Of a stretch of DNA of 64,000 nucleotides, positions 38,460-63,076 are shown piece by piece (within the stretch, counting starts at the first letter, position 1; each line of letters starts with the position of its first letter). The position numbers and the translations under genes are program-made. Under the pieces are notes generated by a model, which had not been told where the DNA came from, searched no databases, and was given only the letters and a program-made list of their open reading frames with translations. The stretch comes from Synechococcus sp. UW105 (GTDB taxonomy: Bacteria; Cyanobacteriota; Cyanobacteriia; PCC-6307; Cyanobiaceae). Location of the stretch: NCBI RefSeq assembly GCF_900473935.1, contig NZ_UCNN01000027.1, forward strand, positions 62,001-126,000, written 5' to 3'.

Positions 38460-39792
38460 CGCGAAGGCGGGAGGTTTGCCCAGTATCCGTGATCAGCCTT
38501 TCGTTCACCAAGCGAGCGATCTCCTCACTGCCTCCGGATCGCCCCATGCGCTGCCGTCCGATGCCTCCCAGCTCTGCGCGCAGCATCGGCTCCTCGAGCA
38601 ATGCTTTCAGGCATCGCCGAAGTTCTTCGGCAGAGGCACAAGTGCGTACCGCGCCCCCCAGCAGCCGGCTCTGACGTTGGGCGAATCCCTTGGTGAATTG
38701 TGGGCCTCGCCCTGGTAGCGATAGGGCTGGGATGCCTAGCCCCACAAGTTGTTCTGTGGCGGTACCGGCGGTTGCCAGTCCCACTTCAGCCCAGCCGGCC
38801 CAGCGGTTGAAGCGGCCGCGTCCAAGCAGGAGCATCTGCACGCCGTTCACCCAGCAGGCCTCGGCTCCCAAGGCATCAGCGGGTGGAGGGCAAGAGATGA
38901 ATCCAAGTCGCCCCAGGAGCGGCTCAAGCGTGCTTTTGGACGGCTGAGAGCCCGTGGCCATGAGCAGGGAGACTGGCACCTGGCTCTGCAATCCCTGAAG
39001 GCTGCGCAAGAGACGTTCAGCGTTCGTGAGCGCTTCCGGCATGCGACTGCCGCAGAGCAGCAGGATCCGGCGGCAGCGTGCGAGGGCCATGGGCGGGCTA
39101 CCCAGGGCCAGCTCATCCATCATCGGATTGCCTGGTGCGAGGGCTGCGATGCCATGACGTCTCAGTCCTCTAGCTGTCAGGCGATCGCGCACAGCGATGA
39201 GTTGGCAGCGACGGCTGCCCATCACGGCCCACTCCCAGGGGTCCCACTCGCTGCCCTTGAGGCGGTGATAGCAGTCGCTCAGGCTTCGTCCTGGGCCACT
39301 ACTCCAGGTGTAATCACTCTTGGGTGTGCCGATGAAGCCAAAGCGTCTGCCAGAGCCCCAGGCCATCAGCAGTGGAAGGAGGTCGCCCACCGCCAGCATG
39401 GCGTCCACATTTCTGCGCAGGCGACGGATGCAGCACCATTGCTGCCAAGTGAGCAGAGGCAGGCCGGCCATCAGATCGGCGATCAGGCCCCTAATGCTCT
39501 GATTGCTGAAGCCGCCACTGGGTAGTGGAGCACTAGGCCCGACCAGCTCCAGCCATCCCTGTTGCAGCGCATTGGTAAACGCTTTCCCTTCTCCAACAAG
39601 GGGAAGCACGGAGAGCACGAGCCGAGGTGAGCGGCGATGCAGTGCTTCCAGGATGCGCAGGGCGATGAGATCTTCACCATGGCCGTTGGAGAGAACGAGC
39701 AGGGACCCAGTGCTCTCGCTGATACGATCCGCTGGTGGGAGCAGTGTTTCCCCAGCGGCGGCATGGCCAAGTGGTAAGGCAGAGGATTGCAA
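38437..39792 (-). CDS. LpxB-like glycosyltransferase (lipid-A-disaccharide synthase related)
   Basis: A GT-B-type glycosyltransferase related to lipid-A-disaccharide synthase, conserved in cyanobacteria. The N-terminal LLVLSNGHGEDLIALRILEA and the C-terminal GLATAGTATEQLVGLGIPAL, with PGRGPQFTKGFAQRQSRLLG, are characteristic. The start is unclear. Downstream of tRNA-Cys no ATG, GTG or TTG lies in frame before the LSNGHGED motif; the nearest canonical one is a TTG at 39792 inside the antisense of tRNA-Cys, used here. An ATG at 39831 or a near-cognate codon around 39700-39750 are alternatives. Confidence 0.78.
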   Translation of the reverse strand: MQSSALPLGHAAAGETLLPPADRISESTGSLLVLSNGHGEDLIALRILEALHRRSPRLVLSVLPLVGEGKAFTNALQQGWLELVGPSAPLPSGGFSNQSIRGLIADLMAGLPLLTWQQWCCIRRLRRNVDAMLAVGDLLPLLMAWGSGRRFGFIGTPKSDYTWSSGPGRSLSDCYHRLKGSEWDPWEWAVMGSRRCQLIAVRDRLTARGLRRHGIAALAPGNPMMDELALGSPPMALARCRRILLLCGSRMPEALTNAERLLRSLQGLQSQVPVSLLMATGSQPSKSTLEPLLGRLGFISCPPPADALGAEACWVNGVQMLLLGRGRFNRWAGWAEVGLATAGTATEQLVGLGIPALSLPGRGPQFTKGFAQRQSRLLGGAVRTCASAEELRRCLKALLEEPMLRAELGGIGRQRMGRSGGSEEIARLVNERLITDTGQTSRLRDGRPPGP

Positions 39793-39827
39793 ATCCTTTA
39801 TCCCCAGTTCGAATCTGGGTGCCGCCT
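39757..39827 (+). tRNA. tRNA-Cys (anticodon GCA), integration target
   Basis: A 71-base cloverleaf. The acceptor stem is GGCGGCA/TGCCGCC with discriminator T, the D-arm has GCCAAGTGGTAAGGC, the anticodon loop TTGCAAA presents GCA, and the T-arm is CCCAGTTCGAATCTGGG. Its last 26 bases form the left attachment site of the island and recur at 48140. The tRNA stays intact because the element supplies an identical 3' end. Confidence 0.97.
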
Positions 39828-39828
39828 T
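39802..39828 (+). repeat. Left attachment site (direct repeat with 48140-48166)
   Basis: 27 bases, from CCCCAGTTCGAATCTGGGTG through CCGCCTT, identical to 48140-48166. It covers the T-arm and 3' acceptor strand of tRNA-Cys plus one base. Identity ends on both sides (T versus G before it, C versus T after it), which defines the recombination core. Confidence 0.95.
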
Positions 39829-39840
39829 CATTTCCTTGAG

Positions 39841-39857
39841 ACCCCGAAAGGGGTTTT
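39841..39857 (+). terminator. Intrinsic terminator after tRNA-Cys
   Basis: ACCCC-GAAA-GGGGT followed by TTTTT: a GNRA-like tetraloop hairpin and T-run 14 bases past the tRNA. It lies inside the island, so the element brings a terminator for the tRNA it rebuilds. Confidence 0.85.
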
Positions 39858-39947
39858 TTGGTGTGTTCTGTATCTCCATGCTACGGAAACACCCCAGATT
39901 TAGCGTTTAACTTGCGTCTCATCTGGGACTGCTCTTTTGCCTCTTGG

Positions 39948-40015
39948 TGTAGGGGACCTGTAGGGGATATGTGACCCCCTTTCCGTTGCGTGGATTCTCC
40001 CACTTGTCCCCTACA
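39948..40015. repeat. Left-end repeat cluster, candidate recombinase arm sites
   Basis: TGTAGGGGA occurs at 39948-39956 and 39959-39967 (11-base period), and its reverse complement TCCCCTACA at 40007-40015. A similar arrangement, two direct copies at an 11-base period plus one inverted copy of a GTAGG-containing motif, occurs at the right end (48009-48085). Confidence 0.6.
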
Positions 40016-40031
40016 GACCGCGCATAAAAAG

Positions 40032-40064
40032 AACCCCTGGCGGTGGTGAATACCTCCAGGGGTT
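40032..40064 (-). terminator. Intrinsic terminator downstream of the DUF1651 gene
   Basis: Arms AACCCCTGG (40032-40040) and CCAGGGGTT (40056-40064). Read on the minus strand the hairpin is followed by CTTTTTATG. It lies 10 bases past the end of the minus-strand gene. Confidence 0.7.
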
Positions 40065-40073
40065 TCGTTGTAT

Positions 40074-40322
40074 TCAGACCTCGGCAGAAGCGCCCCAGGC
40101 GGGTTGTTTAAGAGGTTTCCACCCCTGGGTCTGAAGCGACTTCCACAACTGCTCTGCTGCGTCCTTCCGTAAATAACGACGCTCCTTCAGTAGTGGTGGT
40201 CCTTCAGGGAGTAGTCGTCCTCGGTCCAGGAACACCTTTGGGTCTCTCACCCATGCGGTCTCATCACGCCAGAACCGCCATATCCAGCGGTCGTCGCGGT
40301 CGATCAACCAACCCTCTCGCAT
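40074..40322 (-). CDS. DUF1651 family protein
   Basis: An 82-aa protein of a family abundant in marine picocyanobacteria and of unknown function. Family features are GWLIDRDDRWIWRFWRDE, RDPKVFLDRGRLLPEGPPLL and AAEQLWKSLQTQGWKPL. It is the first island gene after the left repeat cluster and has its own terminator. Base composition is closer to the host than to the AT-rich cargo, so it may have been captured from a picocyanobacterial genome. Confidence 0.72.
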   Translation of the reverse strand: MREGWLIDRDDRWIWRFWRDETAWVRDPKVFLDRGRLLPEGPPLLKERRYLRKDAAEQLWKSLQTQGWKPLKQPAWGASAEV

Positions 40323-40407
40323 AGTTCATCAGTTCTAATCACGGTCGCCGCGGTCACGCAACTGTTTTTTGGGTTGAGTCGGTCGCCGCGTCCTTGTGCT
40401 TGCGCTT

Positions 40408-40525
40408 GGTGTATCAGAACTCAAAAGTGCCGATACATCCCCAGTCGAATCGTGCTTGCTGTGATCTGGGTGTATTGATTATCCGTATCGATATGTCTCT
40501 GCTCGATACAGACATTCGATACACC
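40408..40525. promoter_or_regulatory. Cluster of GATACA half-sites upstream of the serine recombinase (res-like)
   Basis: The half-site CGATACA recurs in both orientations: TGTATC at 40410-40415, GATACA at 40432-40437, TGTATT at 40471-40476, CGATATG at 40489-40495, GATACA at 40505-40510 and 40518-40523. The first pair, and the TGTATT/CGATATG pair, form dyads of about 25-28 bases, the size of a resolvase subsite. The last half-site ends 8 bases before the recombinase ATG. Confidence 0.6.
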
Positions 40526-40530
40526 CCGCC

Positions 40531-41083
40531 ATGGCGTTGGTCGGTTACTGGAGAACCAGCACCACCGAACAGGACGCAGAGCGACAGATCCAGTCGCTCT
40601 TGGAGGCGGGTTGCGAGAAAGACCTTATCTATGGAGACCAGATCACGGGCACCTCTGCTTATGGAGATCGTCCTGGTTTGTCCGAGTGCCTCAAGTCCCT
40701 CCGCCCTGGAGATACATGAACTCGATAGGGCAGGAAGGTCGATGGTCGAAATGCTCGTTCAGGTCAGCGGTCTGATTGAGCGCGGGATCCACATAAAGAC
40801 CCTCGACAAGCGACTCGACACCGCCTCCATGCCTGAAGAACTCGTGAAGTTGGTGGTGGGCGTCATGGGATATGCCGCCGAAATGGAACTCAAGTCCCTG
40901 AAGAAGAGGACTGCTGAAGGCAGGGCAGTCGCCAAGTCCCGTGGGGTGAAGTTCGGAAGGAAGAAGACCTACACAGAGCACCAGGAGGCAGAGGTGCTGA
41001 AGAAGAGCAAAGAAGGGATCGCGTTGTCCTATGCAGGGGTGTCGCTCTCAACCATCACCCGCATCATCAAAGGGAAAAGTTAA
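40531..41083 (+). pseudogene. Serine recombinase (resolvase/invertase family), frameshifted
   Basis: The N-terminal part (40531-40719) reads MALVGYWRTSTTEQDAERQI, with the active Ser in the RTST motif, through GDQITGTSAYGDRPGLSECL to LRPGDT and a stop. The reading then continues in another frame with IHELDRAGRSMVEMLVQVSG, LDTASMPEELVKLVV, the E-helix region and a C-terminal helix-turn-helix (SYAGVSLSTITRIIKG). Intact relatives read RPGDT plus a few residues plus LDRAGRS, so a deletion of a few to about ten bases near 40706-40720 probably broke the gene. Res-like half-sites lie just upstream. Confidence 0.8.
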
Positions 41084-41113
41084 TCGCTTAAAGATTTTAT
41101 TCCAATACTCATT

Positions 41114-41818
41114 TTATTTACTTGCATTATCACTTAGGCGAGGGTATGACTTAATAAGTATATCCATCATGAAAACAATGTACATAAATAATTCAATCAG
41201 TTCGCCATCTACAACGTTAAAACCATTCAAGTGGAATAAATTCCTGATTAAATACGAAATTGCTGAATTCAAAGGGCCTTGGTTGGAGAAGAGGTACAAT
41301 AAAATTCCTATACGGACATAAGGGTGCAATGAAATAATGCTGAATCTTTTTAAGATAGGAATACGGTCCCCTGCATAGAGAAACACAATGACGAATGCAA
41401 CAATAAAGAGTCGAGGGTATAAATGAATGGTGTCTTCGCCCAAAAAATCGAAAGAAGCGAAGCTATTGTTTAGAAAATGAGAGTTATGGAGGTTTAATTC
41501 TGATTGATGATTGTAGTCCGTAAATTTAAATTTGTCCGCCGTCAGATAACTGATCTCCTCAAAAAAGAGCAAACCAAAAAGAGATTGCCTTAGCCAATAA
41601 GTTGAGCGCGAATAAGCGTTTACGAGATAGCTCTTTCTCGCAAATCCCACAATCAGGATAGAAACTATAAGGATTGCCTGGAACATTTCGATATAACCGG
41701 TTTCTCCGTATGCCCTTTCAGGCAAAGAAGTATTAGTTAAGACTACAAAAACTAAGAACAATAATGAAAGGAAGCCAGAACAGCTATAGCTATTAATGGT
41801 CCACGAATTAGAATTCAT
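41114..41818 (-). CDS. Multi-pass membrane protein of unknown function (island cargo)
   Basis: A 234-aa protein with about five or six hydrophobic segments, including FLSLLFLVFVVLTNTSL, FQAILIVSILIVGFA, LFIVAFVIVFLYAG and ELIELFMYIVFMMDIL. I recognise no family. Conserved-looking polar bits are LFFEEISYLTADKF and SFASFDFLGEDTIHLYPR. The gene is AT-rich and in the same orientation as the sulfotransferase operon, 1.5 kb away, so it may belong to the same surface-modification cargo. That link is inference only. Confidence 0.65.
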   Translation of the reverse strand: MNSNSWTINSYSCSGFLSLLFLVFVVLTNTSLPERAYGETGYIEMFQAILIVSILIVGFARKSYLVNAYSRSTYWLRQSLFGLLFFEEISYLTADKFKFTDYNHQSELNLHNSHFLNNSFASFDFLGEDTIHLYPRLFIVAFVIVFLYAGDRIPILKRFSIISLHPYVRIGILLYLFSNQGPLNSAISYLIRNLFHLNGFNVVDGELIELFMYIVFMMDILIKSYPRLSDNASK

Positions 41819-41983
41819 GCTTTAGGCGCAATAGTTGCAATGAATCAATTGTAGCGCATATTATCCTCTAAGTTCTGATAATTACAAAGGGTTTTTATTC
41901 CGATCCTGAACTCCAAAATCTCAACATTATTTCAATCCAAATCTACATGGTTCCCCTGAGCGACCCAGACCTTTGAGATCGGG

Positions 41984-42283
41984 GTGCGTGGTGAAGGCGA
42001 AGAGGGTCGTCAGGTTCTCGCATTCCACACCCATCTCCATCTGGGTGCTCTACCTGATCCTCTGGACCACCTCTGGTACTTAGATCACCTAATTCACCAG
42101 AAGGTCTCTCCGAGGGTCCAGAAACTCCTCAAGACCACTTCAGAGGGGAACAGGGGAGTGGTGATCAAACCCTGGGTCTGGGATCACCATGCGTTCTACA
42201 ACCTGAAGGACTACTACTCCTACAGACACCACCAGGACCCTGACTTGGTTTTGGATTACGAGAATTCAGACCTTCTCTTTTAA
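41984..42283 (+). CDS. Hypothetical protein, possibly a gene fragment
   Basis: A 99-aa reading frame from a GTG, rich in His and aromatic residues (AFHTHLHLGALPDPLDHLWY, KPWVWDHHAFYNLKDYYSYR). I recognise no family. The frame is open for 8 codons before the GTG, up to a stop. An ATG in another frame at 41947 gives MVPLSDPDL then a stop, so this could be the 3' part of a frameshifted gene. It precedes a run of very small genes on the same strand. Confidence 0.45.
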   Translation: MRGEGEEGRQVLAFHTHLHLGALPDPLDHLWYLDHLIHQKVSPRVQKLLKTTSEGNRGVVIKPWVWDHHAFYNLKDYYSYRHHQDPDLVLDYENSDLLF

Positions 42284-42294
42284 ACAATTATCGT

Positions 42295-42504
42295 TTGAAA
42301 ACTATGCAACTACAAATTACTATTTCCTTCACTCCTCTTGAGGTCGCACTCCTCTCCAGAATTCTGGAACGTGGTCAAGAGGTGGATTTTATTTGGTCTC
42401 AGATCCTTCCTTCTTTTGATCAAGAGGAACATCTTGACAAGATCCTCTCTACCCACGATCAGATCATTGAAAAGATAATGTCTATAAATCTGTCTCAATA
42501 CTAA
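42295..42504 (+). CDS. Small acidic protein, paralogous pair member 1
   Basis: A 69-aa protein, MKTMQLQITISFTPLEVALL.. with LPSFDQEEHLDKIL further on. It resembles the next gene in layout: an ITISFTPLEVALLSRIL-like start, a LP-x-F-x-x-EE motif in the middle and an amphipathic helix at the end. I recognise no family. It begins 12 bases after the preceding frame and is AT-rich. Confidence 0.55.
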   Translation: MKTMQLQITISFTPLEVALLSRILERGQEVDFIWSQILPSFDQEEHLDKILSTHDQIIEKIMSINLSQY

Positions 42505-42526
42505 TACCTACTTTATTCTTTTAATC

Positions 42527-42772
42527 ATGAAACTCAAATTCTATGACCAGATCCCTTCTGCGCAAATCACCTTGTCAATAAGAGAACTGGTGATTCTTCA
42601 GTTACTTGCATCAAAACTTTTAACAGAAGACAAAATTTATGAATATGCACTCCCTACTTTCTGCAATGAAGAGGATTCAGAATCGATTGTGGAGTTCGCT
42701 AAAGAGTTAAGAGAAGAACTCGACACCTTGGTTACTGAGTCAGTTCTCACTCTTCCGTCAAAGAACCTCTAA
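42527..42772 (+). CDS. Small acidic protein, paralogous pair member 2
   Basis: An 81-aa protein with ITLSIRELVILQLLASKLL, ALPTFCNEEDSESIVEF and a C-terminal charged helix. It aligns by eye with the preceding gene over about 50 residues, suggesting a tandem duplication. Function is unknown. It starts 23 bases after its neighbour's stop and may be co-transcribed with it. Confidence 0.58.
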   Translation: MKLKFYDQIPSAQITLSIRELVILQLLASKLLTEDKIYEYALPTFCNEEDSESIVEFAKELREELDTLVTESVLTLPSKNL

Positions 42773-42783
42773 ACAGAATAAAT

Positions 42784-42810
42784 AGAGATGTCCCCACCAG
42801 AGACATCTCT
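42784..42810 (+). promoter_or_regulatory. Perfect 9-bp inverted repeat abutting a start codon
   Basis: AGAGATGTC (42784-42792) and GACATCTCT (42802-42810) flank a nine-base loop. The right arm ends directly at the ATG at 42811. No T-run follows. In RNA the hairpin would cover the ribosome-binding region of the next gene, so it may be a translational operator or a DNA operator. Confidence 0.6.
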
Positions 42811-42996
42811 ATGAAGACCCTTGCTAAATCAGATCAAAGAAATATCAATTTGTTCTTTGGGAAAAGGAATCAGACCACTCTGCAGAAGTTTGATTCCTTA
42901 TCCCATCAACTCAGACGATCGAGAACAGGAACACTGGATTATCTGATCACTCACTATGAATGGTTTCAGAATAACCGCAGTGAGGTGATCAGATGA
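42811..42996 (+). CDS. Small basic protein, possible DNA-binding regulator
   Basis: A 61-aa protein: KTLAKSDQRNINLFFGKRN, QTTLQKFDSLSHQLRRSRTG and TLDYLITHYEWFQNN. The QTTLQKFDSL..SRTGTLDYLI segment has the strand-helix-helix pattern of a ribbon-helix-helix repressor, but similarity is weak. Its stop overlaps the next gene's start (ATGA). An inverted repeat immediately upstream could be its own operator. Confidence 0.55.
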   Translation: MKTLAKSDQRNINLFFGKRNQTTLQKFDSLSHQLRRSRTGTLDYLITHYEWFQNNRSEVIR

Positions 42997-43130
42997 CTAT
43001 CACCATTCGACTCACAAAGGTTGAGTACGAGATGCTCAAGGAACTTCAGAAGAAAGACAAGAGGTATAAGAAGGGATTAGAGGAGAAGGTGATATCAGAC
43101 TTGAAGATCGATTACGCAATGATCATCTGA
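42993..43130 (+). CDS. Very small (45 aa) protein, possible ribbon-helix-helix type
   Basis: Translation of 42993-43130 gives a 45-aa protein starting MTITIRLTKVEYEMLKELQK, very Lys/Glu-rich and ending YAMII. The N-terminal strand TITIRLTK followed by a helix is the pattern of a ribbon-helix-helix protein, though a second helix is short. The ATG overlaps the upstream stop in an ATGA, which supports coupled translation and a two-gene unit. Confidence 0.5.
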   Translation: MTITIRLTKVEYEMLKELQKKDKRYKKGLEEKVISDLKIDYAMII

Positions 43131-43293
43131 TCCAATAAAACTTAATCAGGGGTGAATGAATAGTATGCAATGGACTCAGATCATTCATATCTTATCGAAT
43201 TAGATTCAAAGAACTCTTTTAATTAAGTCTTTCCTTCAACCGATCAACTCGACGAGCATGATAAAAAAATACCATTAGAAGATGAATTGCTTT

Positions 43294-43323
43294 AAAAGGA
43301 AGGATTAGTCTTTCCCTCCTTTT
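43294..43323 (-). terminator. Possible terminator of the sulfotransferase operon
   Basis: AAAAGGA (43294-43300) pairs with TCCTTTT (43117+200, i.e. 43317-43323), with a short extra G-C pairing inside. The stem begins in the sulfotransferase stop codon. The minus-strand T-run is part of the stem, so the call is weak. Confidence 0.4.
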
Positions 43324-44296
43324 ATTCGATGCTTAAATAGGATAAGTCATGATACGTGGACAATGCGTTATCAAGCAGACTTTTATCGATATCTAGTGTG
43401 ATGTCTTTTTCTGACTCAGCAAACTCAAAATCATAGGTTTCCTCAATTTGTGCTATTTTCTGAATCTGCAACCAATATTCTTTTGATGAGCAAAGTTTTT
43501 CATAAGATGTAAAATGAATATTGCGATTAGCATTCGGCAGTTCAAGGGTGGTTTTGTAGGTAAGGTGCCATTGCTCAATCCAATGATTTATATCTAAATC
43601 ATTATCGTACTTTAAATTGTTTCTGTGAATAGGATTGTAATTTGGACCAAATTCAGTGTGCCCAATCCATTTCATATATTTAGACATGAATTGGTCGTCT
43701 TTAGAATCTTCAATAAACTTTTTGTGTTGCATAAGCAATGAGTATGATTGTTGAACTGGGTCTCTAAAAGGAACAAGTATCCTTGAGTGAGAAAAAAAGG
43801 AAGATATCAATTCAAGTCTTTTTATGTTTTGATTGTTTTTGCTTAGATATCTATTTTTTTTGTACTTATGCATAATAGTCTTTACATAATTTCTAAACTT
43901 TTCCTCTAACTCTTCTTCGCTTTCGTCAGCAAAAGTTTTCCAAAATACTTCTTCAAATGCTTCTGGCGATTCTATCGAAACTTTAATGCCGTCACCATGC
44001 GCCCTTTCCTTTAGTTCTAAATTATTTTTATTGATGGATATTTTAGACCAAAGATTGGGAGCAAGAATGAATGGCATATCAGTATAAGAAAGAGATGCAA
44101 AAATATTTGACTTGTGGAGTGCATTTAATAATATAGTGGACCCAGAACGCGCAAGACCTGCAATAAAGATATGATTATCAGTTTTAGTTGAAGAGGGCAT
44201 ATATGTACTTTCAAAATCAAAAATGACTTCACGCATAAATTGCGATGAAAGTGCTAATTGATGCAACTTTTGTTCCAACCAAGTATAATTGTTCAT
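43322..44296 (-). CDS. Sulfotransferase family protein
   Basis: A 324-aa PAPS-dependent sulfotransferase. The 5'-phosphosulfate loop HIFIAGLARSGSTILLNAL is at about residues 42-60 (Arg-Ser-Gly-Ser-Thr), and the 3'-phosphate motif RILVPFRDPVQQSYSLL is at about 172-188. The substrate cannot be read from sequence; glycans, lipids or small molecules are all possible. Codon use is strongly AT-biased (many Lys/Asn). Its ATG overlaps the upstream gene's stop by 4 bases, making it the last gene of a four-gene unit. Confidence 0.8.
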   Translation of the reverse strand: MNNYTWLEQKLHQLALSSQFMREVIFDFESTYMPSSTKTDNHIFIAGLARSGSTILLNALHKSNIFASLSYTDMPFILAPNLWSKISINKNNLELKERAHGDGIKVSIESPEAFEEVFWKTFADESEEELEEKFRNYVKTIMHKYKKNRYLSKNNQNIKRLELISSFFSHSRILVPFRDPVQQSYSLLMQHKKFIEDSKDDQFMSKYMKWIGHTEFGPNYNPIHRNNLKYDNDLDINHWIEQWHLTYKTTLELPNANRNIHFTSYEKLCSSKEYWLQIQKIAQIEETYDFEFAESEKDITLDIDKSLLDNALSTYHDLSYLSIE

Positions 44297-44649
44297 TGTA
44301 TAATTTTCCCCCTCAGATAGACATATCCAAACGCAAAGAGCAAGGATTCAAGAATTCCTATAGATGAGAAAGCAAATGAAACTAAACCATTTGAAAGGTA
44401 ATCTCCAATAATAAAAAGAAGCAGAATTGACAAGAGAATTATTACTATTCTAAGTGAAGATCTCATGACTTGCAATGAATATGCTGGAATGATATTTTCT
44501 TTCCAGTGATTACTTATTTTTTTATTTAATATGATACAAATCGCTTTTTTGCTTGCATTGATTATTAAATTTATCGAAGCAATGTAATTTGATCTGATCA
44601 ATGCCTCAACAGACAATAAACAAATTACGAAAAGAATACAGTGTTTCAC
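44293..44649 (-). CDS. Small membrane protein of the sulfation cassette
   Basis: A 118-aa protein with a hydrophobic N-terminus (HCILFVICLLSVEALI) and two further membrane segments (IVIILLSILLLFIIGDYL and LVSFAFSSIGILESLLFAFG). I recognise no family. It overlaps both neighbours by 4 bases (ATGA), so all three genes are probably co-translated. A scaffold or transport role for the sulfotransferases is only a guess. Confidence 0.6.
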   Translation of the reverse strand: MKHCILFVICLLSVEALIRSNYIASINLIINASKKAICIILNKKISNHWKENIIPAYSLQVMRSSLRIVIILLSILLLFIIGDYLSNGLVSFAFSSIGILESLLFAFGYVYLRGKIIQ

Positions 44650-44834
44650 TGTTTTCCATCATTTTTTTGAGATGAATTATTTTTCTTCAATTTCTTATTT
44701 TTAAGAGCGCGTTTGATTGGATAATACAGTACACCCCATAACCCTAAGAGGAAGGCAGCAATAATTCCAAAAATAGCAGCAATTACTCCACCTGCCATTC
44801 CAGGTCCTATGTAAGCAAATAATGGCGCTACCAT
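44646..44834 (-). CDS. Small membrane protein (YIGPG motif)
   Basis: A 62-aa protein with one long hydrophobic stretch, MAGGVIAAIFGIIAAFLLGL, after APLFAYIGPG, then a strongly basic tail (KRALKNKKLKKNNSSQKN). Small proteins with a Y-I-G/D-P-G motif and a basic tail often accompany surface-polymer and sulfatase/phosphodiesterase loci, but the function is unknown. It starts 18 bases after the arylsulfotransferase gene. Confidence 0.6.
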   Translation of the reverse strand: MVAPLFAYIGPGMAGGVIAAIFGIIAAFLLGLWGVLYYPIKRALKNKKLKKNNSSQKNDGKQ

Positions 44835-44852
44835 AGAAAAGATACAATTAAT

Positions 44853-46220
44853 TCAATTATTGCATTTCCCTCTTGATTCCATGAAATTTTTTACTATTTT
44901 GACATCATCGTCTGTGTACATAATGCGTGACCATGACAATTGATAAACTTTCTGATTACCTGCACGATTGACATATGTCCATATTAGTGAGTTATCGGCA
45001 CCAAAGTACAGTATTCTGCCATAATCTGTCTCTTCTATAAAAAGATCATTGTTTGGAAGAATCTGACTCCTGCCCTGTGTTGTTGTCCTGACATCATTTT
45101 TAATTAAACCCTTATTTTGGTAAGGAGAGTATTTATTTGCCCTGAAGTCATAAATGATTACTTCATTATTTCCGTCTACAATGTCACCATCCACGAAATC
45201 CTTTGAGTTATTATTAAAAATTGATATAGTGTGGTTATTTAAAACATCTACATCATGTTGGTGAAAGAATGGACCTGTCCCTTTCCAGATAATTTTATTT
45301 GTCGCAGGTCGATACAACAAGACCATTGACTGATGCCTTATCGATAAAAATAGATCTCCCTTTTTCCAAAACTTTCCATCAAAATTAACTGGTTGTATAT
45401 CATTTAAGTGTATTGGATCATTGCTAAATTTACTATTTCCCGCAGAAAATAATAGATACTCGAGACTATTGTCTATAAAGATTTGAGAAACAGACTTTTC
45501 AAATAGAATTTCACCATTAGGAGATAATTTAACAATTGAATCATCCAAATATCCTTCTTCTGAGGGGATATCTCTGCCAACTTTGAAGATCGGTAGAGTT
45601 TGTGGATACGAATGAGATGGAACCCATATATTCCCATCGTGATCTGTTTCTATCGAATGGTGGAATAAGTCATGCGTATTTTGAAAAATTAGATTAGAGC
45701 AAGCATCTATTTTTATTAATGGTGAGTGATCTTTAAAAATCAAACCACCATGCTTGTCTAACTTGGGATGTCTCAACAGGTATCTTGATTGATTTTTGTC
45801 TCTAGACAAATGTTTAAATTCACTAATTTTTTCAACCGATTTGTTAAATTCATCAATATCTGGATTCCAGGTATGCAATACCTTAAAGTTTGTTAAATCG
45901 ACCAATTCAACTATTCCTGCTCCTAGGTCTCCATCATGTCTTGAAAGTAGAAGATAGGTCTCATGTGAGTTAGGGTTTCCACTAAAACCACCTAGCGATG
46001 GAAATCTGTCTTGCGCTAGAAAGTGTTTATTTATTAAAATCTTCTTTATATTTGCAGGGATTTCTGCCAGGAATAATGCGGGTTTAGAAATAACGCTCAA
46101 CTTTTTGCCGCCAAGCGCTTCATGTCTTACGAGAGCGCCAAAACCAATTGTTAGGGGGATACCTAAAAGAACGACTAAATAAAGAATCCAAACCTCAATT
46201 TTTTTGAACACGCTAGACAA
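44853..46220 (-). CDS. Arylsulfotransferase (ASST) family protein, membrane-anchored
   Basis: A 455-aa protein with one N-terminal transmembrane anchor (WILYLVVLLGIPLTIGFGAL, about residues 11-30) and a large exported beta-propeller-like domain. Features of the arylsulfotransferase family are HHSIETDHDGNIWVPSHSY with catalytic-type His residues, FHQHDVDVLNNHTISIFNN, and repeated blade strands such as NNEVIIYDF. PAPS-independent enzymes of this family move sulfate from a phenolic sulfate donor to an acceptor. It is the first gene of the cassette and very AT-rich. Confidence 0.7.
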   Translation of the reverse strand: MSSVFKKIEVWILYLVVLLGIPLTIGFGALVRHEALGGKKLSVISKPALFLAEIPANIKKILINKHFLAQDRFPSLGGFSGNPNSHETYLLLSRHDGDLGAGIVELVDLTNFKVLHTWNPDIDEFNKSVEKISEFKHLSRDKNQSRYLLRHPKLDKHGGLIFKDHSPLIKIDACSNLIFQNTHDLFHHSIETDHDGNIWVPSHSYPQTLPIFKVGRDIPSEEGYLDDSIVKLSPNGEILFEKSVSQIFIDNSLEYLLFSAGNSKFSNDPIHLNDIQPVNFDGKFWKKGDLFLSIRHQSMVLLYRPATNKIIWKGTGPFFHQHDVDVLNNHTISIFNNNSKDFVDGDIVDGNNEVIIYDFRANKYSPYQNKGLIKNDVRTTTQGRSQILPNNDLFIEETDYGRILYFGADNSLIWTYVNRAGNQKVYQLSWSRIMYTDDDVKIVKNFMESRGKCNN

Positions 46221-46597
46221 TGTAATAATCTCTTATATTGTAGTCTATTTCAGATCTATCCGCCATTCTTCTGCCAACTCCTCTTTTGTGATGGTGTTGG
46301 AGAAGGAAATGACAATGTCCAACTCAAAATCAGTATGTCAATGATCACTGCTTTAGCGTTGGACGTCTGGCAAGGACCTCAAACTTGCTGCAGTGGAACT
46401 CATAGAGAAGTCTGGTGAGTGACCATGTCGCTCATGAGTCGTGGACGTATGGATCTCGCATCCAGTCGGTCCCAGTTGCTCCTTTGAGTTGTCCTCGACC
46501 AGTTGCGAGTGCCTCAGTCGCTCTCTTTGCGTCGTAGTGGAAGTAGTGCTAGTGGACGTACTGGATTGAGGTGTCGCAGTTGTTTCTTGAGTGCTGA
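46221..46597. other. Intergenic region between arylsulfotransferase and integrase genes
   Basis: 377 bases with no gene I can support. The left part must hold the promoter of the sulfation cassette (minus strand, upstream of 46220). The hexamer GGACGT recurs several times between 46360 and 46560. A 93-codon minus-strand frame (46353-46634) is Ser/Thr-rich, low in complexity and overlaps the integrase end, and is treated as spurious. Confidence 0.5.
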
Positions 46598-48004
46598 TTA
46601 ATAGTCCTCGTCTTTTCTCTTGACCATCGTCCACTTCCCTTCTCCAATCGTTTGACGCGATTCGCGTGCTGTACGCTCTGCATCGATGTATCTCAGGTAT
46701 GTGTTCCTGAGTTGGTCTGGACTGGTGTGACCGTTGTCCGCAAAAGAGTTGATCTTTGGAGGGATTGCTAATCCAGGGTCTTCTTCAAGGGTTAAACGAA
46801 ATGCCGTGTGTCGAATGGTTGTCCATTTTCTGCCTGATGCAGGGAAATCGTTTTCGAAAGTTTTCTCCATTACGTGCTTAAGAAGGAAGTTCAGGGTCTT
46901 CAGGACATGACTGTCTGCCGGATTGCCTTCTGGTCTATCGATCTGAGGAAGAACCAGATACCCAGATGGTTTCCTTCTGTGGAGTCGTTCCCAAAATCTG
47001 AATCCATCTTTTCTGTAGTGGGTCGTCTGATGAATCGGACGATCCTTTTTTGTTGTCTCCAAATTGCAGACAACAGTCTTGTTCCCCTGGTCCCTGAACC
47101 ACTCGCTCTTGATTCGGTACATGTCTTCTGCCCGCAGGTAGAAGAACCACTCCAAGAGAAGTGCGTCATAGAGATCGACCCAGTTGCGTTGGTTCAGTCG
47201 ACTGCTCTTGCTCCACTCCAACTCCCTGTACTCGTCTGGATCGAGGAGTTGTCTCGCTGAGTCGAGAGATAAGTCCACCACTGCTGCCAGGAGTTGGTCC
47301 CACTGCTTCTGAGTCAGATGCTGAACCTGTTTGGTCTGCTTGCTGATCGCAGGAAATCTTGGAAATGCATGCCCAGGGAAGTCGTCCTCTGCCAGTGCCA
47401 GGAGTTTGTTGATCAGGGTTTTCTGCTGACCCTTCATCCCACTGCCATTGGATCCGCTGCTTCCACGTGCACGTCTCTCCAGAAGGGAGAAGTAGTCCTT
47501 GAAGTCCTGACTCGTAATCAGGTCAACGCTTCTGGACGCCCAAGGTTGGTGACGGATGCCGTATTCACTTGCGTCCCACTTCAGGGACTCCTCTCGCTTC
47601 CACCGCTTGAAATTGCGTTGGGTCTCTCGGGTTCGGGATTCAGACGCGAAGTACCGCTCCCAGTACTCGCCAAGTGAGTTCTTGTTTTGTTCTTCCTGTA
47701 GGTCCAGGACTGCCTTGCTCTCGTCCTGCCACTGCTGGAACAGGGTGACCGACCTCTTTGCCGCCTCGTAAGGGTCTTCTGTCCCCGTGGTCCTCTGGAT
47801 GGTCAGACGCTTCCCCAGACCGCCCTTGGATCGCCCCTGATGGGGTCTTGGGTCATCGCCGGGGTCTGGTAACCACTCCGCGTACAGAACCCGTGTATGG
47901 GTCTGTCGCTTGATCCTGAGGTTCTGCGGGTACGAACCACGCACTCCAAAGACCTTCGACACGTTCAGGGTCGTCCAGTCCTCGGGGAGTGATGCTTTGC
48001 CCAC
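46598..48004 (-). CDS. int: Tyrosine recombinase (island integrase)
   Basis: A 468-aa site-specific recombinase at the right end of the island. The catalytic set can be read: Arg291 in FFYLRAEDMYRIKSEW, a Lys in LETTKKDR, Arg398 in WTTIRHTAFRL, His426 in ADNGHTSPDQL and the nucleophile Tyr436 in RNTYLRYIDAE. The His that usually precedes the second Arg by three residues is Thr. Residues 1-230 are the arm- and core-binding part. Translation starts at a GTG; an inverted copy of the end repeats lies 5 bases upstream, suggesting autoregulation. Confidence 0.88.
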   Translation of the reverse strand: MGKASLPEDWTTLNVSKVFGVRGSYPQNLRIKRQTHTRVLYAEWLPDPGDDPRPHQGRSKGGLGKRLTIQRTTGTEDPYEAAKRSVTLFQQWQDESKAVLDLQEEQNKNSLGEYWERYFASESRTRETQRNFKRWKREESLKWDASEYGIRHQPWASRSVDLITSQDFKDYFSLLERRARGSSGSNGSGMKGQQKTLINKLLALAEDDFPGHAFPRFPAISKQTKQVQHLTQKQWDQLLAAVVDLSLDSARQLLDPDEYRELEWSKSSRLNQRNWVDLYDALLLEWFFYLRAEDMYRIKSEWFRDQGNKTVVCNLETTKKDRPIHQTTHYRKDGFRFWERLHRRKPSGYLVLPQIDRPEGNPADSHVLKTLNFLLKHVMEKTFENDFPASGRKWTTIRHTAFRLTLEEDPGLAIPPKINSFADNGHTSPDQLRNTYLRYIDAERTARESRQTIGEGKWTMVKRKDEDY

Positions 48005-48008
48005 CTCG

Positions 48009-48085
48009 CTTACCTACCTGGGTCTGTCGCCCAGTTCTGAACACTGACCCACTTTGCCGTCTCTGGTAGGTAAGTGGTAGGTAAG
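48009..48085. repeat. Right-end repeat cluster, candidate recombinase arm sites
   Basis: TGGTAGGTAAG is repeated in tandem at 48064-48074 and 48075-48085 (11-base period), and its inverse CTTACCTACC occurs at 48009-48018, just before the integrase start. The geometry mirrors that at the left end (39948-40015), and both motifs contain GTAGG. Confidence 0.65.
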
Positions 48086-48104
48086 TTGTCGGTTTTCTTC
48101 GACT

Positions 48105-48130
48105 AAACCCCAGTGTTTATGGGGTTTTTA
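48105..48130 (+). terminator. Intrinsic terminator at the right end of the island
   Basis: AAACCCC (48105-48111) and GGGGTTT (48121-48127) with a nine-base loop and further Ts. It points out of the island and lies 10 bases before the right attachment site. Confidence 0.7.
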
Positions 48131-48139
48131 TATGTTAAG

Positions 48140-48166
48140 CCCCAGTTCGAATCTGGGTGCCGCCTT
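48140..48166 (+). repeat. Right attachment site (direct repeat with 39802-39828)
   Basis: A perfect 27-base copy of the tRNA-Cys 3' part, here without the 5' half of a tRNA. It marks the right boundary of the island. Its last ten bases are also the left arm of a long hairpin (48157-48229). Confidence 0.95.
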
Positions 48167-48229
48167 TGAAATAATCCCTGAGAGTGGCGATTGATACTGC
48201 ATCCTCAGGGATTGTTTCAAAGGCGGCAC
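48157..48229 (+). repeat. 26-bp hairpin overlapping the right attachment site
   Basis: The left arm 48157-48182 begins GTGCCGCCTTTGAAA, and the right arm 48204-48229 ends TTTCAAAGGCGGCAC. All 26 positions pair in plus-strand RNA: 25 Watson-Crick and one U-G (48172 with 48214). The loop has 21 bases. The stem includes the tRNA 3' acceptor sequence. Apart from this, 48167-48306 holds nothing I can name. Confidence 0.85.
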
Positions 48230-48306
48230 TGGAAGGTGAATCCGTAATGCAGATACGCCTCAAAGAAGTCTCCCAGATTCAGCTTCCGAGTGACTTAGAG
48301 GCAGAT

Positions 48307-48831
48307 CTACAGGTCGGGGGTGGCATCTCGCCTCAGCTTCTGAAGTTCTTGGCGGAACCGCTCCCAGAATCCGTCGATAAACTTGATCCCTTCGATTGCC
48401 TCAGCGGGGCATAATTTCGCCCACTGCATAAACGGGTTGCCAGCGACTGTTTGGAACTTCGGTTCTCCTGCTGCATCCCCCTCGCGCCAGTAAACATCCT
48501 GCATCCAGGCATCTGTCCGATCAGGGCGCGAACTGCTGGCGAACTGTTCTCCCTTGCAGTCAGCGAACAACCAGACATCAGCAACAGGAGGACCTGCTCT
48601 GCCTGACGCTGGTTCATCAACGCACTTCTTGGTCTCCCAATTGCAGTTCTGAATCCAAGTCCTGCGCCGAACCTTGAGACGGATCCAACCATCAGGCATC
48701 CGCTCTGGCCGTGACAACTGCTCGGTTTCGACACGGCACCCAGTTCCACAACCAAAGACAGGAAGGACATGCTCTTGAGGCACAGTCAGATCCTGAGGGG
48801 TAGTCAGCAGCAGGAATAGCAAGGGATTCAT
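48307..48831 (-). CDS. Secreted cysteine-containing protein of unknown function
   Basis: A 174-aa protein starting MNPLLFLLLTTPQDLTVPQE, with a short hydrophobic leader that may be a signal peptide. Cysteines occur in FGCGTGCRVE, NCNWETKKCVDE and FADCKGEQF, enough for disulfides in the periplasm. I recognise no family. The ATG at 48831 overlaps the upstream LprI-like gene (ATGA); a longer open frame upstream is antisense-like and rejected. It lies just outside the island's right boundary. Confidence 0.6.
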   Translation of the reverse strand: MNPLLFLLLTTPQDLTVPQEHVLPVFGCGTGCRVETEQLSRPERMPDGWIRLKVRRRTWIQNCNWETKKCVDEPASGRAGPPVADVWLFADCKGEQFASSSRPDRTDAWMQDVYWREGDAAGEPKFQTVAGNPFMQWAKLCPAEAIEGIKFIDGFWERFRQELQKLRRDATPDL

Positions 48832-49142
48832 CTGCCCAACCCCTTGAGTTCTTCCAAGAGAGCTCGGTTGAGTCTGTCGTCGCATCCAACAACCATCTGG
48901 GGGTAAATGGTTCCCTGTCTGTATGGGGCGTAGGCAGCAGCGCAGACCTCCTGTGTTGCTGCTTTCCACTTCTCCAGGGTCACTGGGGTGAGTTGCTTTT
49001 TGAGTGCCTGGTTGGACTCCTCCCACTTTTGAGCGGCACAGAACCTGATTTCATGTGTCGTATGACCAGGGCACTGGATCTCTGGTTCCTCTGCCTTCAC
49101 AGGCACCACAGGCAGAAGCAGCAGGAGCACCAGTGCTTTCAC
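48828..49142 (-). CDS. LprI/DUF1311-like secreted protein
   Basis: A 104-aa protein with signal peptide VKALVLLLLLPVVPVKAEE (GTG start at 49142). The mature part has the LprI layout: CPGHTTHEIRFCAAQKWEE, WKAATQEVCAAAYAPYRQGT and a final CDDRLNRALLEEL, with four Cys. LprI-type proteins have been linked to lysozyme inhibition, but many family members have no known role. It is coupled to the next gene by a 4-base overlap. Confidence 0.65.
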   Translation of the reverse strand: MKALVLLLLLPVVPVKAEEPEIQCPGHTTHEIRFCAAQKWEESNQALKKQLTPVTLEKWKAATQEVCAAAYAPYRQGTIYPQMVVGCDDRLNRALLEELKGLGR

Positions 49143-49330
49143 TTTTCCTCTTCTAATACAACTTTCTCCACCACAGCATCCTTCACTCGGTCTCAAACGG
49201 TCTTGCCGTCTTGATCGGGAGCAATCGCATTGGCAGTTGCCTTGGAGTCGGGCAGGGCTGCTGGTCGGCCTTGGTGCAGATCGGAGAGGCCCTTGAAGTG
49301 GTGTGGGGTGTGGGGTGTGGTGGATGCGAT

Positions 49331-58027: not shown

Positions 58028-58054
58028 GTAAGCTACTTGCTTAGATCTGCTTAA

Positions 58055-58543
58055 TCAGATCAGGGCATTGATTGCGTAGTCGATGTAGCTGTTGGCTTCG
58101 GTGGCAGCACTGCCGGAAAGGCCGTGGTTGGCTTTGATGTGCTTCAGAGCTTCAACATACCAAGTAGGAGAAAGCTCAAAGGTGCGGTTGATCTCAGCCA
58201 GTCCGGCGATCAGATAATCATCCATGGGGCCAGTACCACCAGCGACCAGGCAGTAGGTGATCATGCGCAGGTAGTAGCCGACGTCACGGGAGCACTTGGC
58301 TTTACCTTCAGAGGTCGAGGCGTAGTTGGCGCCTTCCATCTGGGTGGTGAAGGGAAACTTGGTGTAGACAGCCTGAGCTGCACTGTTCACCAGAGCATCA
58401 GCCTGGGTGGTGAGGGCTTTGGCTGCCTCAAGGCTTGCCGTGGCGCGGTTGAAACGACCGGATGCCGCCTGAACTTCAGTGTTGCTGAGGAACCGACCTT
58501 GGGAGTCTGCTGCTGCAACAGCTTCGGTGAGGGGAGTTTTCAT
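58055..58543 (-). CDS. rpcA: Phycocyanin alpha subunit
   Basis: A 162-aa alpha-phycocyanin. The single chromophore Cys84 is in [20 protein letters not shown]. The start [20 protein letters not shown] and the end [11 protein letters not shown] are typical. In phycoerythrin-rich marine Synechococcus this is R-phycocyanin, with Cys84 carrying phycourobilin or phycoerythrobilin depending on the lyase; the neighbouring rpcG predicts phycourobilin. It lies 42 bases after rpcB in the usual BA order. Confidence 0.95.
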
Positions 58544-58585
58544 TGCTATAGAGAGGAATTAATAACGTTGAGTGCGACGCCTTGA

Positions 58586-59104
58586 TCAGGCGACGGAGGC
58601 TGCAGCGCGATCGAAGTAGGTGCCGATTTCACTACTCAGGGAGGCGCAGTCACCTGAGGAGATCCCAGACTTGTCGTTAACGGTGGACAATGCTGCGTCC
58701 TTCATCAGGTTCACGCCGGCTGCCACGGAAGCACCGGGAGTTCCCAGGGCGAGATAGGTCTCACGCAGACCGTTCAGGCAGCGGTCTTCCATCACGGAAG
58801 CATCGCCGGTGAAGATCGAGTAGGTGACATAGCGCAGGATGATCTCCATGTCGCGCAGGCAAGCGGCCATGCGGCGGGAGGTGTAAGCGTTGCCACCGGG
58901 GGCGATCAGTGCAGGCTGCTGGGCGAACAGGCCGCGGGCAGCGTTTGCAACGATGCTGGAGGCGTTGCTGGAGATACGGTTGACGGCATCCAGACGCTTG
59001 TTGCTGTCGGAAACCATGGCTGCCAGCGCATCGATTTCGCTGGCGGTGATGAACTGGCCCCTGGCGTCGGCCTGGGCGACCACCTTGGTGAAGGCGTCGA
59101 ACAT
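58586..59104 (-). CDS. rpcB: Phycocyanin beta subunit
   Basis: A 172-aa beta-phycocyanin. Bilin sites are Cys82-equivalent in [17 protein letters not shown] and Cys153-equivalent in [20 protein letters not shown]. The conserved Asn methylation region is NAYTSRRM. The N-terminus [20 protein letters not shown] is standard. It heads the rpcBA operon; its promoter lies in the 179-base gap before pebB. Confidence 0.95.
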
Positions 59105-59283
59105 TTGGAACTCCTCTTGGCAGCGTCTAAGTGTGTGTCACAGACACAGGAGGGACATCGACAAAAGTCCCGTCTGAGTCGTTCAAGATTCTCGCGAAGT
59201 GGAGCGGAGGCTCCCGAAAGCTGTTCATAATGCTTAATCGCCTTTTGCTCACAGGGATCTCGCACATGCAGGAAAGAGACCCC

Positions 59284-61610: not shown

Positions 61611-62528
<918 letters not shown>

Positions 62529-62569
62529 TCAGCGTTATCAATTTAATTTTCAGCAATTCTCCCCTTTAA

Positions 62570-63076
<507 letters not shown>

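What the first reader, a model, noticed from the sequence alone, without database searches (positions are those of the whole stretch)
39757..48166. Tycheposon-like island integrated in tRNA-Cys
A 27-base perfect repeat of the tRNA-Cys 3' end bounds 8.4 kb of mostly AT-rich sequence with a full tyrosine recombinase at one end. The sequence shows the repeats and the catalytic residues directly. The class (tRNA-targeted picocyanobacterial elements with a tyrosine recombinase and no own capsid or conjugation genes) is established; membership is inferred from layout.
Basis: partly seen in the sequence, partly recalled or inferred. Interest (0 to 1): 0.75.

Follow-up and report, generated by a model that had tools for sequence, protein, structure and literature searches.

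The report
Stacked mobile elements beside tRNA-Cys
Beside one tRNA gene of a marine cyanobacterium lie pieces of three related mobile elements, stacked and partly fused, with an intact DNA-inserting enzyme and a set of sulphur-chemistry genes that look borrowed from low-GC cousins; the enzyme family is already described, the stacking and the matched pairs of end sites are new detail.

Summary
In detail: an intact tRNA-Cys, a perfect 27-bp copy of its 3' end 8.3 kb away, and a full tyrosine recombinase just inside that copy. The nearest relative has the empty site. A distant congener carries a 96%-identical recombinase at the same tRNA with other cargo. But this is probably not a tycheposon. 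The recombinase has the traits of a picocyanobacterial integrase family that a 2023 preprint reports as distinct from tycheposon integrases: tRNA-Cys/tRNA-Phe targets, a small serine recombinase nearby, no clear Pfam or PHROG match.

Nor is it one intact element. Across the family each end carries two ~9-bp direct repeats 11 bp apart and usually an inverted copy; both ends match within an element and differ between elements. Here the left repeats (TGTAGGGGA) do not match the integrase side (GGTAGGTAA). The left end resembles another element (G034), the right G021's, and beyond the right core lies the left end of a third (Prochlorococcus MIT 0701). Foreign DNA runs 39829-49231. The serine recombinase is frameshifted and a putative replication protein truncated. 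Most likely a stacked, chimeric, partly decayed island carrying an AT-rich sulfotransferase cassette.

The parts
39757..39827 (+). tRNA-Cys(GCA), integration target, gene intact
39802..39828 (+). attL core (3' end of tRNA-Cys)
   Evidence: 27-bp exact repeat
39829..40068 (+). left end of element type A, like the left end of the G034 tRNA-Cys element (L117)
   Evidence: 71% over 247 columns, E 1e-31 in a search of 18 short sequences
39948..39967 (+). arm-type pair TGTAGGGGA x2, 11 bp apart (inverted third copy at 40007-40015)
40074..40322 (-). DUF1651 protein, part of the type A left module
   Evidence: PF07864 E 6.3e-22; 89% to L117 copy
40394..41083 (+). small serine recombinase (resolvase/invertase type), frameshifted in its N-terminal part
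   Evidence: PF00239 E 5e-11 on the C-terminal frame; the two tblastn pieces lie in different frames; intact relative L044:3778-4383
41114..41818 (-). 234-aa ORF, no family match, no relative among the fetched loci of other genomes
41984..42283 (+). C-terminal remnant of orfA; putative HUH-type replication initiator (motif reading only); N-terminal part lost
   Evidence: 92% to residues 91-183 of the 184-aa G021 protein; motifs
42295..43130 (+). four small ORFs (69, 81, 61, 45 aa); the last two follow orfA in several other loci too
43322..44296 (-). sulfotransferase (cargo)
   Evidence: PF13469 E 3.3e-11
44293..44834 (-). two small ORFs (118 and 62 aa) of the cargo block
   Evidence: found with the other two cargo genes in 6 of 6 low-GC loci
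44853..46220 (-). arylsulfotransferase-like protein (cargo)
   Evidence: PF14269 E 3.5e-56
46598..48004 (-). tyrosine recombinase (integrase), 468 aa, type B
   Evidence: 96% to G021
48010..48084 (.). type B arm sites: inverted GGTAGGTAA at 48010, direct pair at 48065 and 48076
48140..48166 (+). attR core
   Evidence: 27-bp exact repeat
48167..48301 (+). left-end remnant of a third element (type C, like Prochlorococcus MIT 0701); one arm site GGAAGGTGA left at 48231-48239
   Evidence: 75.5% over 147 columns, E 1.7e-26; arm site
48307..49231 (-). two small ORFs (239-aa; 122-aa weak LprI match, below cut-off) absent from the empty site; probably old cargo of type C

Best explanation
A stack of site-specifically integrated, tRNA-Cys-targeting elements of one picocyanobacterial integrase family. 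The element enters as a circle; its lambda-type integrase binds a 20-27-bp core (T-arm and acceptor end of the tRNA) with its core-binding and catalytic domains, and arm sites at both element ends with its N-terminal domain, then recombines circle and tRNA so that the tRNA is rebuilt on the left. Because the tRNA keeps its core, further elements insert at the same place and stack. In this genome at least three left traces: type C (only its left end remains, right of 48166), type B (right end with intact integrase) and type A (left end beside the tRNA). Deletion or recombination between A and B fused A's left module to B's core and cargo, cutting orfA, and the serine recombinase suffered a frameshift. 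The current 8.3-kb unit can be cut at its two cores in principle, but its own integrase lacks matching arm sites at the left end, so I expect weak or no self-excision. Shown: cores, empty site, homologies, arm-site pattern, frameshift, truncation. Inferred: integrase binding roles, order of events, loss of mobility, cargo origin in low-GC Prochlorococcus-like donors.
For: Empty site: G029 has tRNA-Cys, 188 bp without a match, then 98.1% identity over 9,889 bp from window 49232 on, and 96.8% over 3,932 bp on the left. Same integrase, same tRNA, other cargo in G021 (6.1 kb). A tRNA-Cys or tRNA-Phe 3'-end copy (4 or fewer mismatches) lies 29-194 bp upstream of the integrase reading frame in 30 of 32 distinct loci; apart from the tRNAs only 2 other such copies occur in 671 kb. 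A small serine recombinase is found in 15 of 20 loci where the tRNA is within reach (19 of these with a core copy), 15 of the 16 with a full-length integrase. Arm pairs (period 11, at least 9 of 10 matches): left 17 of 17, right 15 of 17, control segments 36 of 3,789; left/right pairing within elements reached by 0 of 20,000 shuffles (10 representatives, window left out). Window left arms match own right arms 6 of 9, L117's 8 of 9. Left end like L117, right flank like the MIT 0701 left end. Integrase fold. Tree: window with G021 and G120, 100/100.
Against: No reads or circular junction could be examined. Arm sites are called from sequence, in registers that I chose output; no binding data. The frameshift could be an assembly error. 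The window's left end also resembles the sequence after tRNA-Cys in six congeners that have no integrase there (blastn runs on to 39889-39901 in G001, G006, G007, G011, G024, G027) and the right flank of the G021 element (to 39885), so part of 'A's left end' might be captured chromosome; but the homology with L117 runs past the arm sites to 40068, and DUF1651 beyond it matches too. These six flanks show no period-11 pair in 400 bp. Two of 32 loci lack the core copy (L104 with a broken integrase frame, L110 with only an N-terminal match).
Confidence: 0.75

Rival explanations
1. One ordinary, complete and still mobile integrative element of this family; the mismatch of its arm sites is natural divergence and the flanking MIT 0701-like piece is unrelated old island DNA.
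For: Integrase intact, both cores perfect; spacing and layout of both arm sets are normal (left 121/132/180, right -128/-73/-62).
Against: In 15 of 15 other elements with assigned arms the two ends match at 8 or 9 of 9, here 6 of 9. The left end is closer to another element type than to G021's. Serine recombinase and orfA are broken.
Confidence: 0.17
2. A true tycheposon: member of the tycheposon family with a divergent recombinase.
For: tRNA target, tyrosine recombinase, cargo, no capsid or conjugation genes among scanned ORFs, picocyanobacterial hosts.
Against: A family with these same traits is reported to be distinct from tycheposon integrases (PMC10187409).
Confidence: 0.06
3. A prophage or phage satellite remnant.
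For: Integrase at a tRNA gene and small size.
Against: No integrase relative in 50,697 phage records or by a pattern-led scan of the viral contigs; no structural gene among the ORFs scanned.
Confidence: 0.02

Closest known systems
Picocyanobacterial tyrosine integrase family of PMC10187409 (2023 preprint, cluster158946; one results section, passages and figure legends read)
   Same: Host range, tRNA-Cys or tRNA-Phe beside the gene, small serine recombinase nearby, variable island content, no clear PHROG match, conserved Arg/Lys/Arg/Tyr, lambda Int among the nearest structures
   Different: The text read infers the tRNA as target from position and clade; here cores, an empty site, arm sites and stacking are shown. 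Sequence identity to its members could not be tested.
Tycheposons (Hackl et al. 2023; paper not held, recalled; passages in PMC10872708 and PMC11389934)
   Same: tRNA-targeted, tyrosine recombinase, cargo, no own capsid or conjugation genes seen
   Different: Integrase family reported as separate; tycheposon hallmark genes not tested here
Lambda / Tn1549 type integrase systems (integrases with core and arm sites; mechanism recalled)
   Same: Fold over core-binding and catalytic domains; core plus short repeated sites at both ends
   Different: Here two direct repeats 11 bp apart plus usually an inverted one on each side; no excisionase identified

Membership tests
PMC10187409 picocyanobacterial integrase elements | Tyrosine recombinase with Arg, Lys, Arg, Tyr kept | tested here: met
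   R291, R398, Y436 invariant, K319 nearly so in 13 rows; fold
PMC10187409 picocyanobacterial integrase elements | Beside tRNA-Cys or tRNA-Phe, groups follow the tRNA | tested here: met
   core copy in 30 of 32 loci; label needs 2 changes on a tree of 23, shuffled mean 7.3-7.4
PMC10187409 picocyanobacterial integrase elements | Small serine recombinase frequently nearby | tested here: met
   15 of 20 loci with the tRNA in reach; frameshifted in the window
PMC10187409 picocyanobacterial integrase elements | Sequence in cluster158946 / similar to WP_052038630 | not testable with these tools
   sequence not held
Tycheposons | Tycheposon-type tyrosine recombinase | not testable with these tools
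   sequences not held; PMC10187409 says a family with these traits is distinct
Tycheposons | tRNA-targeted cargo island, 4-200 kb | tested here: met
   8.3 kb at tRNA-Cys; size range as stated in PMC10872708
Tycheposons | Hallmark mobile-lifecycle genes | not tested
   primary paper not held
Lambda-type integrase systems | Core plus arm-type sites at both ends of the element | tested here: met
   at sequence level only; binding not tested
HUH replication initiators (orfA) | E, HxH and YxxK motifs in order, HUH fold | tested here: inconclusive
   motif residues invariant in 13 homologues (motif names recalled); no Pfam or PHROG match (three unrelated weak hits), no HUH chain among PDB matches, model failed, pLDDT 38

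The most novel reading that the evidence does not exclude
tRNA-Cys acts as a stacking site where different elements of one family sit head to tail and exchange end modules, cargo and helper genes. Each element's two sets of arm sites co-vary with its integrase, so the mismatch in this window marks a chimera frozen in place. The elements carry two chemically different recombinases and, in some, a so far unnamed HUH-type replication protein, i.e. they are integrating plasmid-like elements; and in congeners a catalytic-less half of the integrase has been kept by selection, perhaps to block further insertions.
Probability: 0.35. Interest if true: 0.65.

Novelty: new member of a known kind. Interest (0 to 1): 0.45.

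Why it matters
Picocyanobacteria exchange many genes but have few known gene carriers. Exact ends, an empty site, a same-site element with swapped cargo and a readable arm-site pattern make this recently named integrase family testable: ends can be predicted for other members, chimeras spotted by mismatched arms, and the integrase tried in a two-plasmid assay. The AT-rich sulfotransferase cassette points to gene flow from low-GC Prochlorococcus-like cells into a 60%-GC Synechococcus-like host (inferred).

Tried and rejected
Integrase against Pfam (none at E 0.1), PHROGs (two weak hits to families of unknown function, best E 0.019), PDB sequences, viral contigs (pattern-led), phages and plasmids: no clear relative. 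orfA against Pfam, PHROGs, phages, PDB sequences and viral contigs: nothing meaningful; its AlphaFold2 model was useless, so the HUH reading rests on motifs alone. The cargo's tRNA-Ser neighbours in 6 low-GC loci were checked for exact copies (14 bases or more) of the tRNA 3' end on the same strand: none, so how the cassette moves there is unknown. The PF00589 search (134 of 151 genomes) gave many other integrases; I built no tree with them, expecting too low identity. Loci cut by contig or fetch ends were left out of the serine-recombinase tally (12 of 32); L104 was kept in it although its core copy was not found. For one search's permutation I left out the window, L105 and five elements with the same or nearly the same arms (L111, L115, L097, L113, L114); L105's right end did not give the pair by the unbiased rule (7 of 10) and L095's gave 8 of 10. 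Single arm-like motifs in right flanks had no control of their own. Rejected: prophage; tandem duplication of a single element (the three ends belong to different types).
Full report
OBSERVATION. tRNA-Cys lies at 39757-39827. A perfect 27-bp copy of its 3' end is at 48140-48166, and the assembly has no third copy by that search. A 468-aa reading frame at 46598-48004 (-) starts about 135 bp inside the right copy. It has no Pfam family at E 0.1 and only two weak PHROG hits. In 13 rows R291, R398, H399 and Y436 are invariant and K319 nearly so; the usual first His of the HxxR box is Thr here and the later His (426) varies (motif names recalled). The model (pLDDT 83.6, pTM 0.52) matches Tn1549 integrase (E 3.9e-5), lambda integrase (E 1e-3) and Cre (E 3e-3); VIA-align Z is 14.2 at best. 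It is a tyrosine recombinase.

EMPTY SITE AND SAME-SITE RELATIVE. G029 is nearly identical on both sides (96.8% over 3,932 bp; 98.1% over 9,889 bp) and has tRNA-Cys followed by 188 unmatched bp and then the homologue of window 49232. So 39829-49231, 9.4 kb, is extra in the window, not only 39829-48166; the 188 bp of G029 are absent from the window, perhaps lost with the right end of element C (inference). In 17 of 25 relatives' loci the tRNA is likewise followed within 1.5 kb by the homologue of window 49232 or of about 50.1 kb; of the other 8, one is G021, one stops at the tRNA (G030) and six have other sequence there. G021, whose flank is only 72% identical, has a 6.1-kb element at the same tRNA with a 96%-identical integrase, shared core ORFs (two stretches within 42020-43099, 89-92%) and integrase end (94.7%), but a TPR protein instead of the sulfotransferase block.

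FAMILY. The profile of four integrases finds matches, remnants included, in 43 of 400 family genomes (15 of 59 genera) and 21 named loci, among them Prochlorococcus single cells, MIT 0701, Vulcanococcus limneticus and Synechococcus MU1642. I examined 32 distinct loci with full-length, broken or half integrases. In 30 of them a copy of the tRNA-Cys or tRNA-Phe 3' end lies 29-194 bp upstream of the integrase frame, always in the same orientation; in 671 kb the only other copies with 4 or fewer mismatches are the tRNAs and two further-out copies (L096, L101) (two of its 34 rows, L119 and L120, repeat L097 and L092 and are not counted). In 20 loci the tRNA is within reach (19 with a core copy); 15 of them carry a small serine recombinase, 15 of the 16 with a full-length integrase. 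On a tree of 23 full-length integrases the tRNA label needs two changes against 7.3-7.4 when shuffled (1 and 0 of 500 shuffles as low). PMC10187409 (one section, passages and legends read) describes just such a family, found beside tRNA-Phe or tRNA-Cys, often near a small serine recombinase, and distinct from tycheposon integrases. I file the window's integrase there on shared traits; sequence identity could not be tested.

ARM SITES. Without giving a motif, I took the best 10-mer pair with period 11 in the first 250 bp of the left end and the last 200 bp before the right core of 17 elements. At least 9 of 10 matches: left 17 of 17, right 15 of 17; control segments of 250 bp 36 of 3,789. In the 16 elements with assigned arms a third, inverted copy (8 or 9 of 9) is found in 15 left ends, 58-71 bp after the first direct copy, and in 14 right ends, 55-79 bp before it. 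The repeat differs between elements (GGTAGGTAA, GGTAGGAAA, GGAAGGTGA, GGATGGTAA, TGTAGCGGA and so on) but is the same or nearly so at both ends of one element (8 or 9 of 9 in 15 of 15 others than the window; 0 of 20,000 shuffles reach the observed sum for 10 representatives). I read them as integrase arm sites (inference, by analogy with lambda). I found no report of them in the listings or in the text read; supplements were not read.

THE WINDOW IS A CHIMERA. Its left pair is TGTAGGGGA, its right pair GGTAGGTAA; these and one pair at 14394 are the only exact 9-mer pairs with period 11 in 64 kb. The left end (39827-40068) matches the left end of the G034 element L117 (71% over 247 columns, E 1e-31), and DUF1651 matches its copy at 89%; DUF1651 plus serine recombinase also match the tRNA-Phe element L112 (73-79%). 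The first 60-73 bp also resemble the sequence after tRNA-Cys in six congeners without an integrase there, so that part may be captured chromosome. From 42020 on, the shared stretches are G021-like. The 137 bp from 48165 on match the left end of the MIT 0701 element (75.5% over 147 columns, E 1.7e-26), with one of its two arm copies deleted. So three element types meet here. Right flanks with arm-like sequence of a further element occur in 6 of 25 loci examined, as pairs in two (L090, L095) and as single motifs in four (window, L091, L101, L102), the singles without a control. The junction of A and B lies between 41084 and 42019. The serine recombinase is frameshifted and orfA has lost its N-terminal half.

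ORFA. 21 of 400 family genomes have a match, remnants included; open frames of the fuller ones are about 180-250 aa. It is in 5 of the 32 integrase loci (window truncated) and elsewhere, sometimes within 1.6-2.3 kb of ordinary PF00589 integrases (G142, G060). In 13 homologues Glu, three His in HxHxH, and Tyr-x-x-Lys are invariant in that order, the layout of HUH replication initiators (recalled). No search or model confirms it. It is a lead.

CARGO. Sulfotransferase, two small ORFs and an arylsulfotransferase-like gene form a 33%-GC block. For the last, 13 of 400 family genomes have a match, none of them another genome of this genus; the six best are at 62-69%. In those six low-GC (0.32-0.34) loci all four genes lie together (in L177 rearranged, with an extra arylsulfotransferase fragment), and a tRNA-Ser is within the fetched stretch (6 of 6). 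In one of them (L174) a serine recombinase of the window's type (62.5%) lies beside the block. Transfer from such donors is likely; direction is inferred from GC content and distribution.

HALF INTEGRASES. Five congeners keep an N-terminal half (227-252 aa, no catalytic domain), four of them with tRNA-Phe in the fetched stretch, none found for G025. dN/dS among the five is 0.10-0.23 at dS 0.20-0.82. C-terminal tails or the sequence past the stop look alike by eye within two pairs (L050/L052, L051/L054), which suggests but does not prove a shared truncation; part of the constraint could predate it. Two more are broken (L055, L056). One arm site (GGTATGGGA) is left upstream of the gene in four loci by eye.

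VERDICT. Confirmed observation; class corrected; island extended to 49231; most likely a stacked, chimeric, partly decayed member of a known integrase-element family.

Noticed in passing
L050:5804-6502, L051:6612-7346, L052, L053, L054: Catalytic-less N-terminal half integrases with dN/dS 0.10-0.23, four of five with tRNA-Phe nearby: possibly domesticated, perhaps blocking insertion.
   Followed up: partly
window 41984-42283; L044:4991-5545; L123-L136, L142: Unnamed protein family (orfA) with HUH-like motifs, often followed by two small ORFs, present in more than one kind of element.
   Followed up: partly
L173-L178: The four-gene sulfotransferase/arylsulfotransferase block of the window recurs with a tRNA-Ser nearby in six low-GC loci.
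   Followed up: partly
window 58054-59118 and 62074-62903: Matched repeatedly, in direct and in reverse orientation, by a tandem array of about 2.4-kb units in G018 (L045, L046).
   Followed up: no
L046:7815-15182: A 7.37-kb element of the same family in tRNA-Phe of G018 with a 176-aa protein weakly like DNA primase zinc ribbons.
   Followed up: partly
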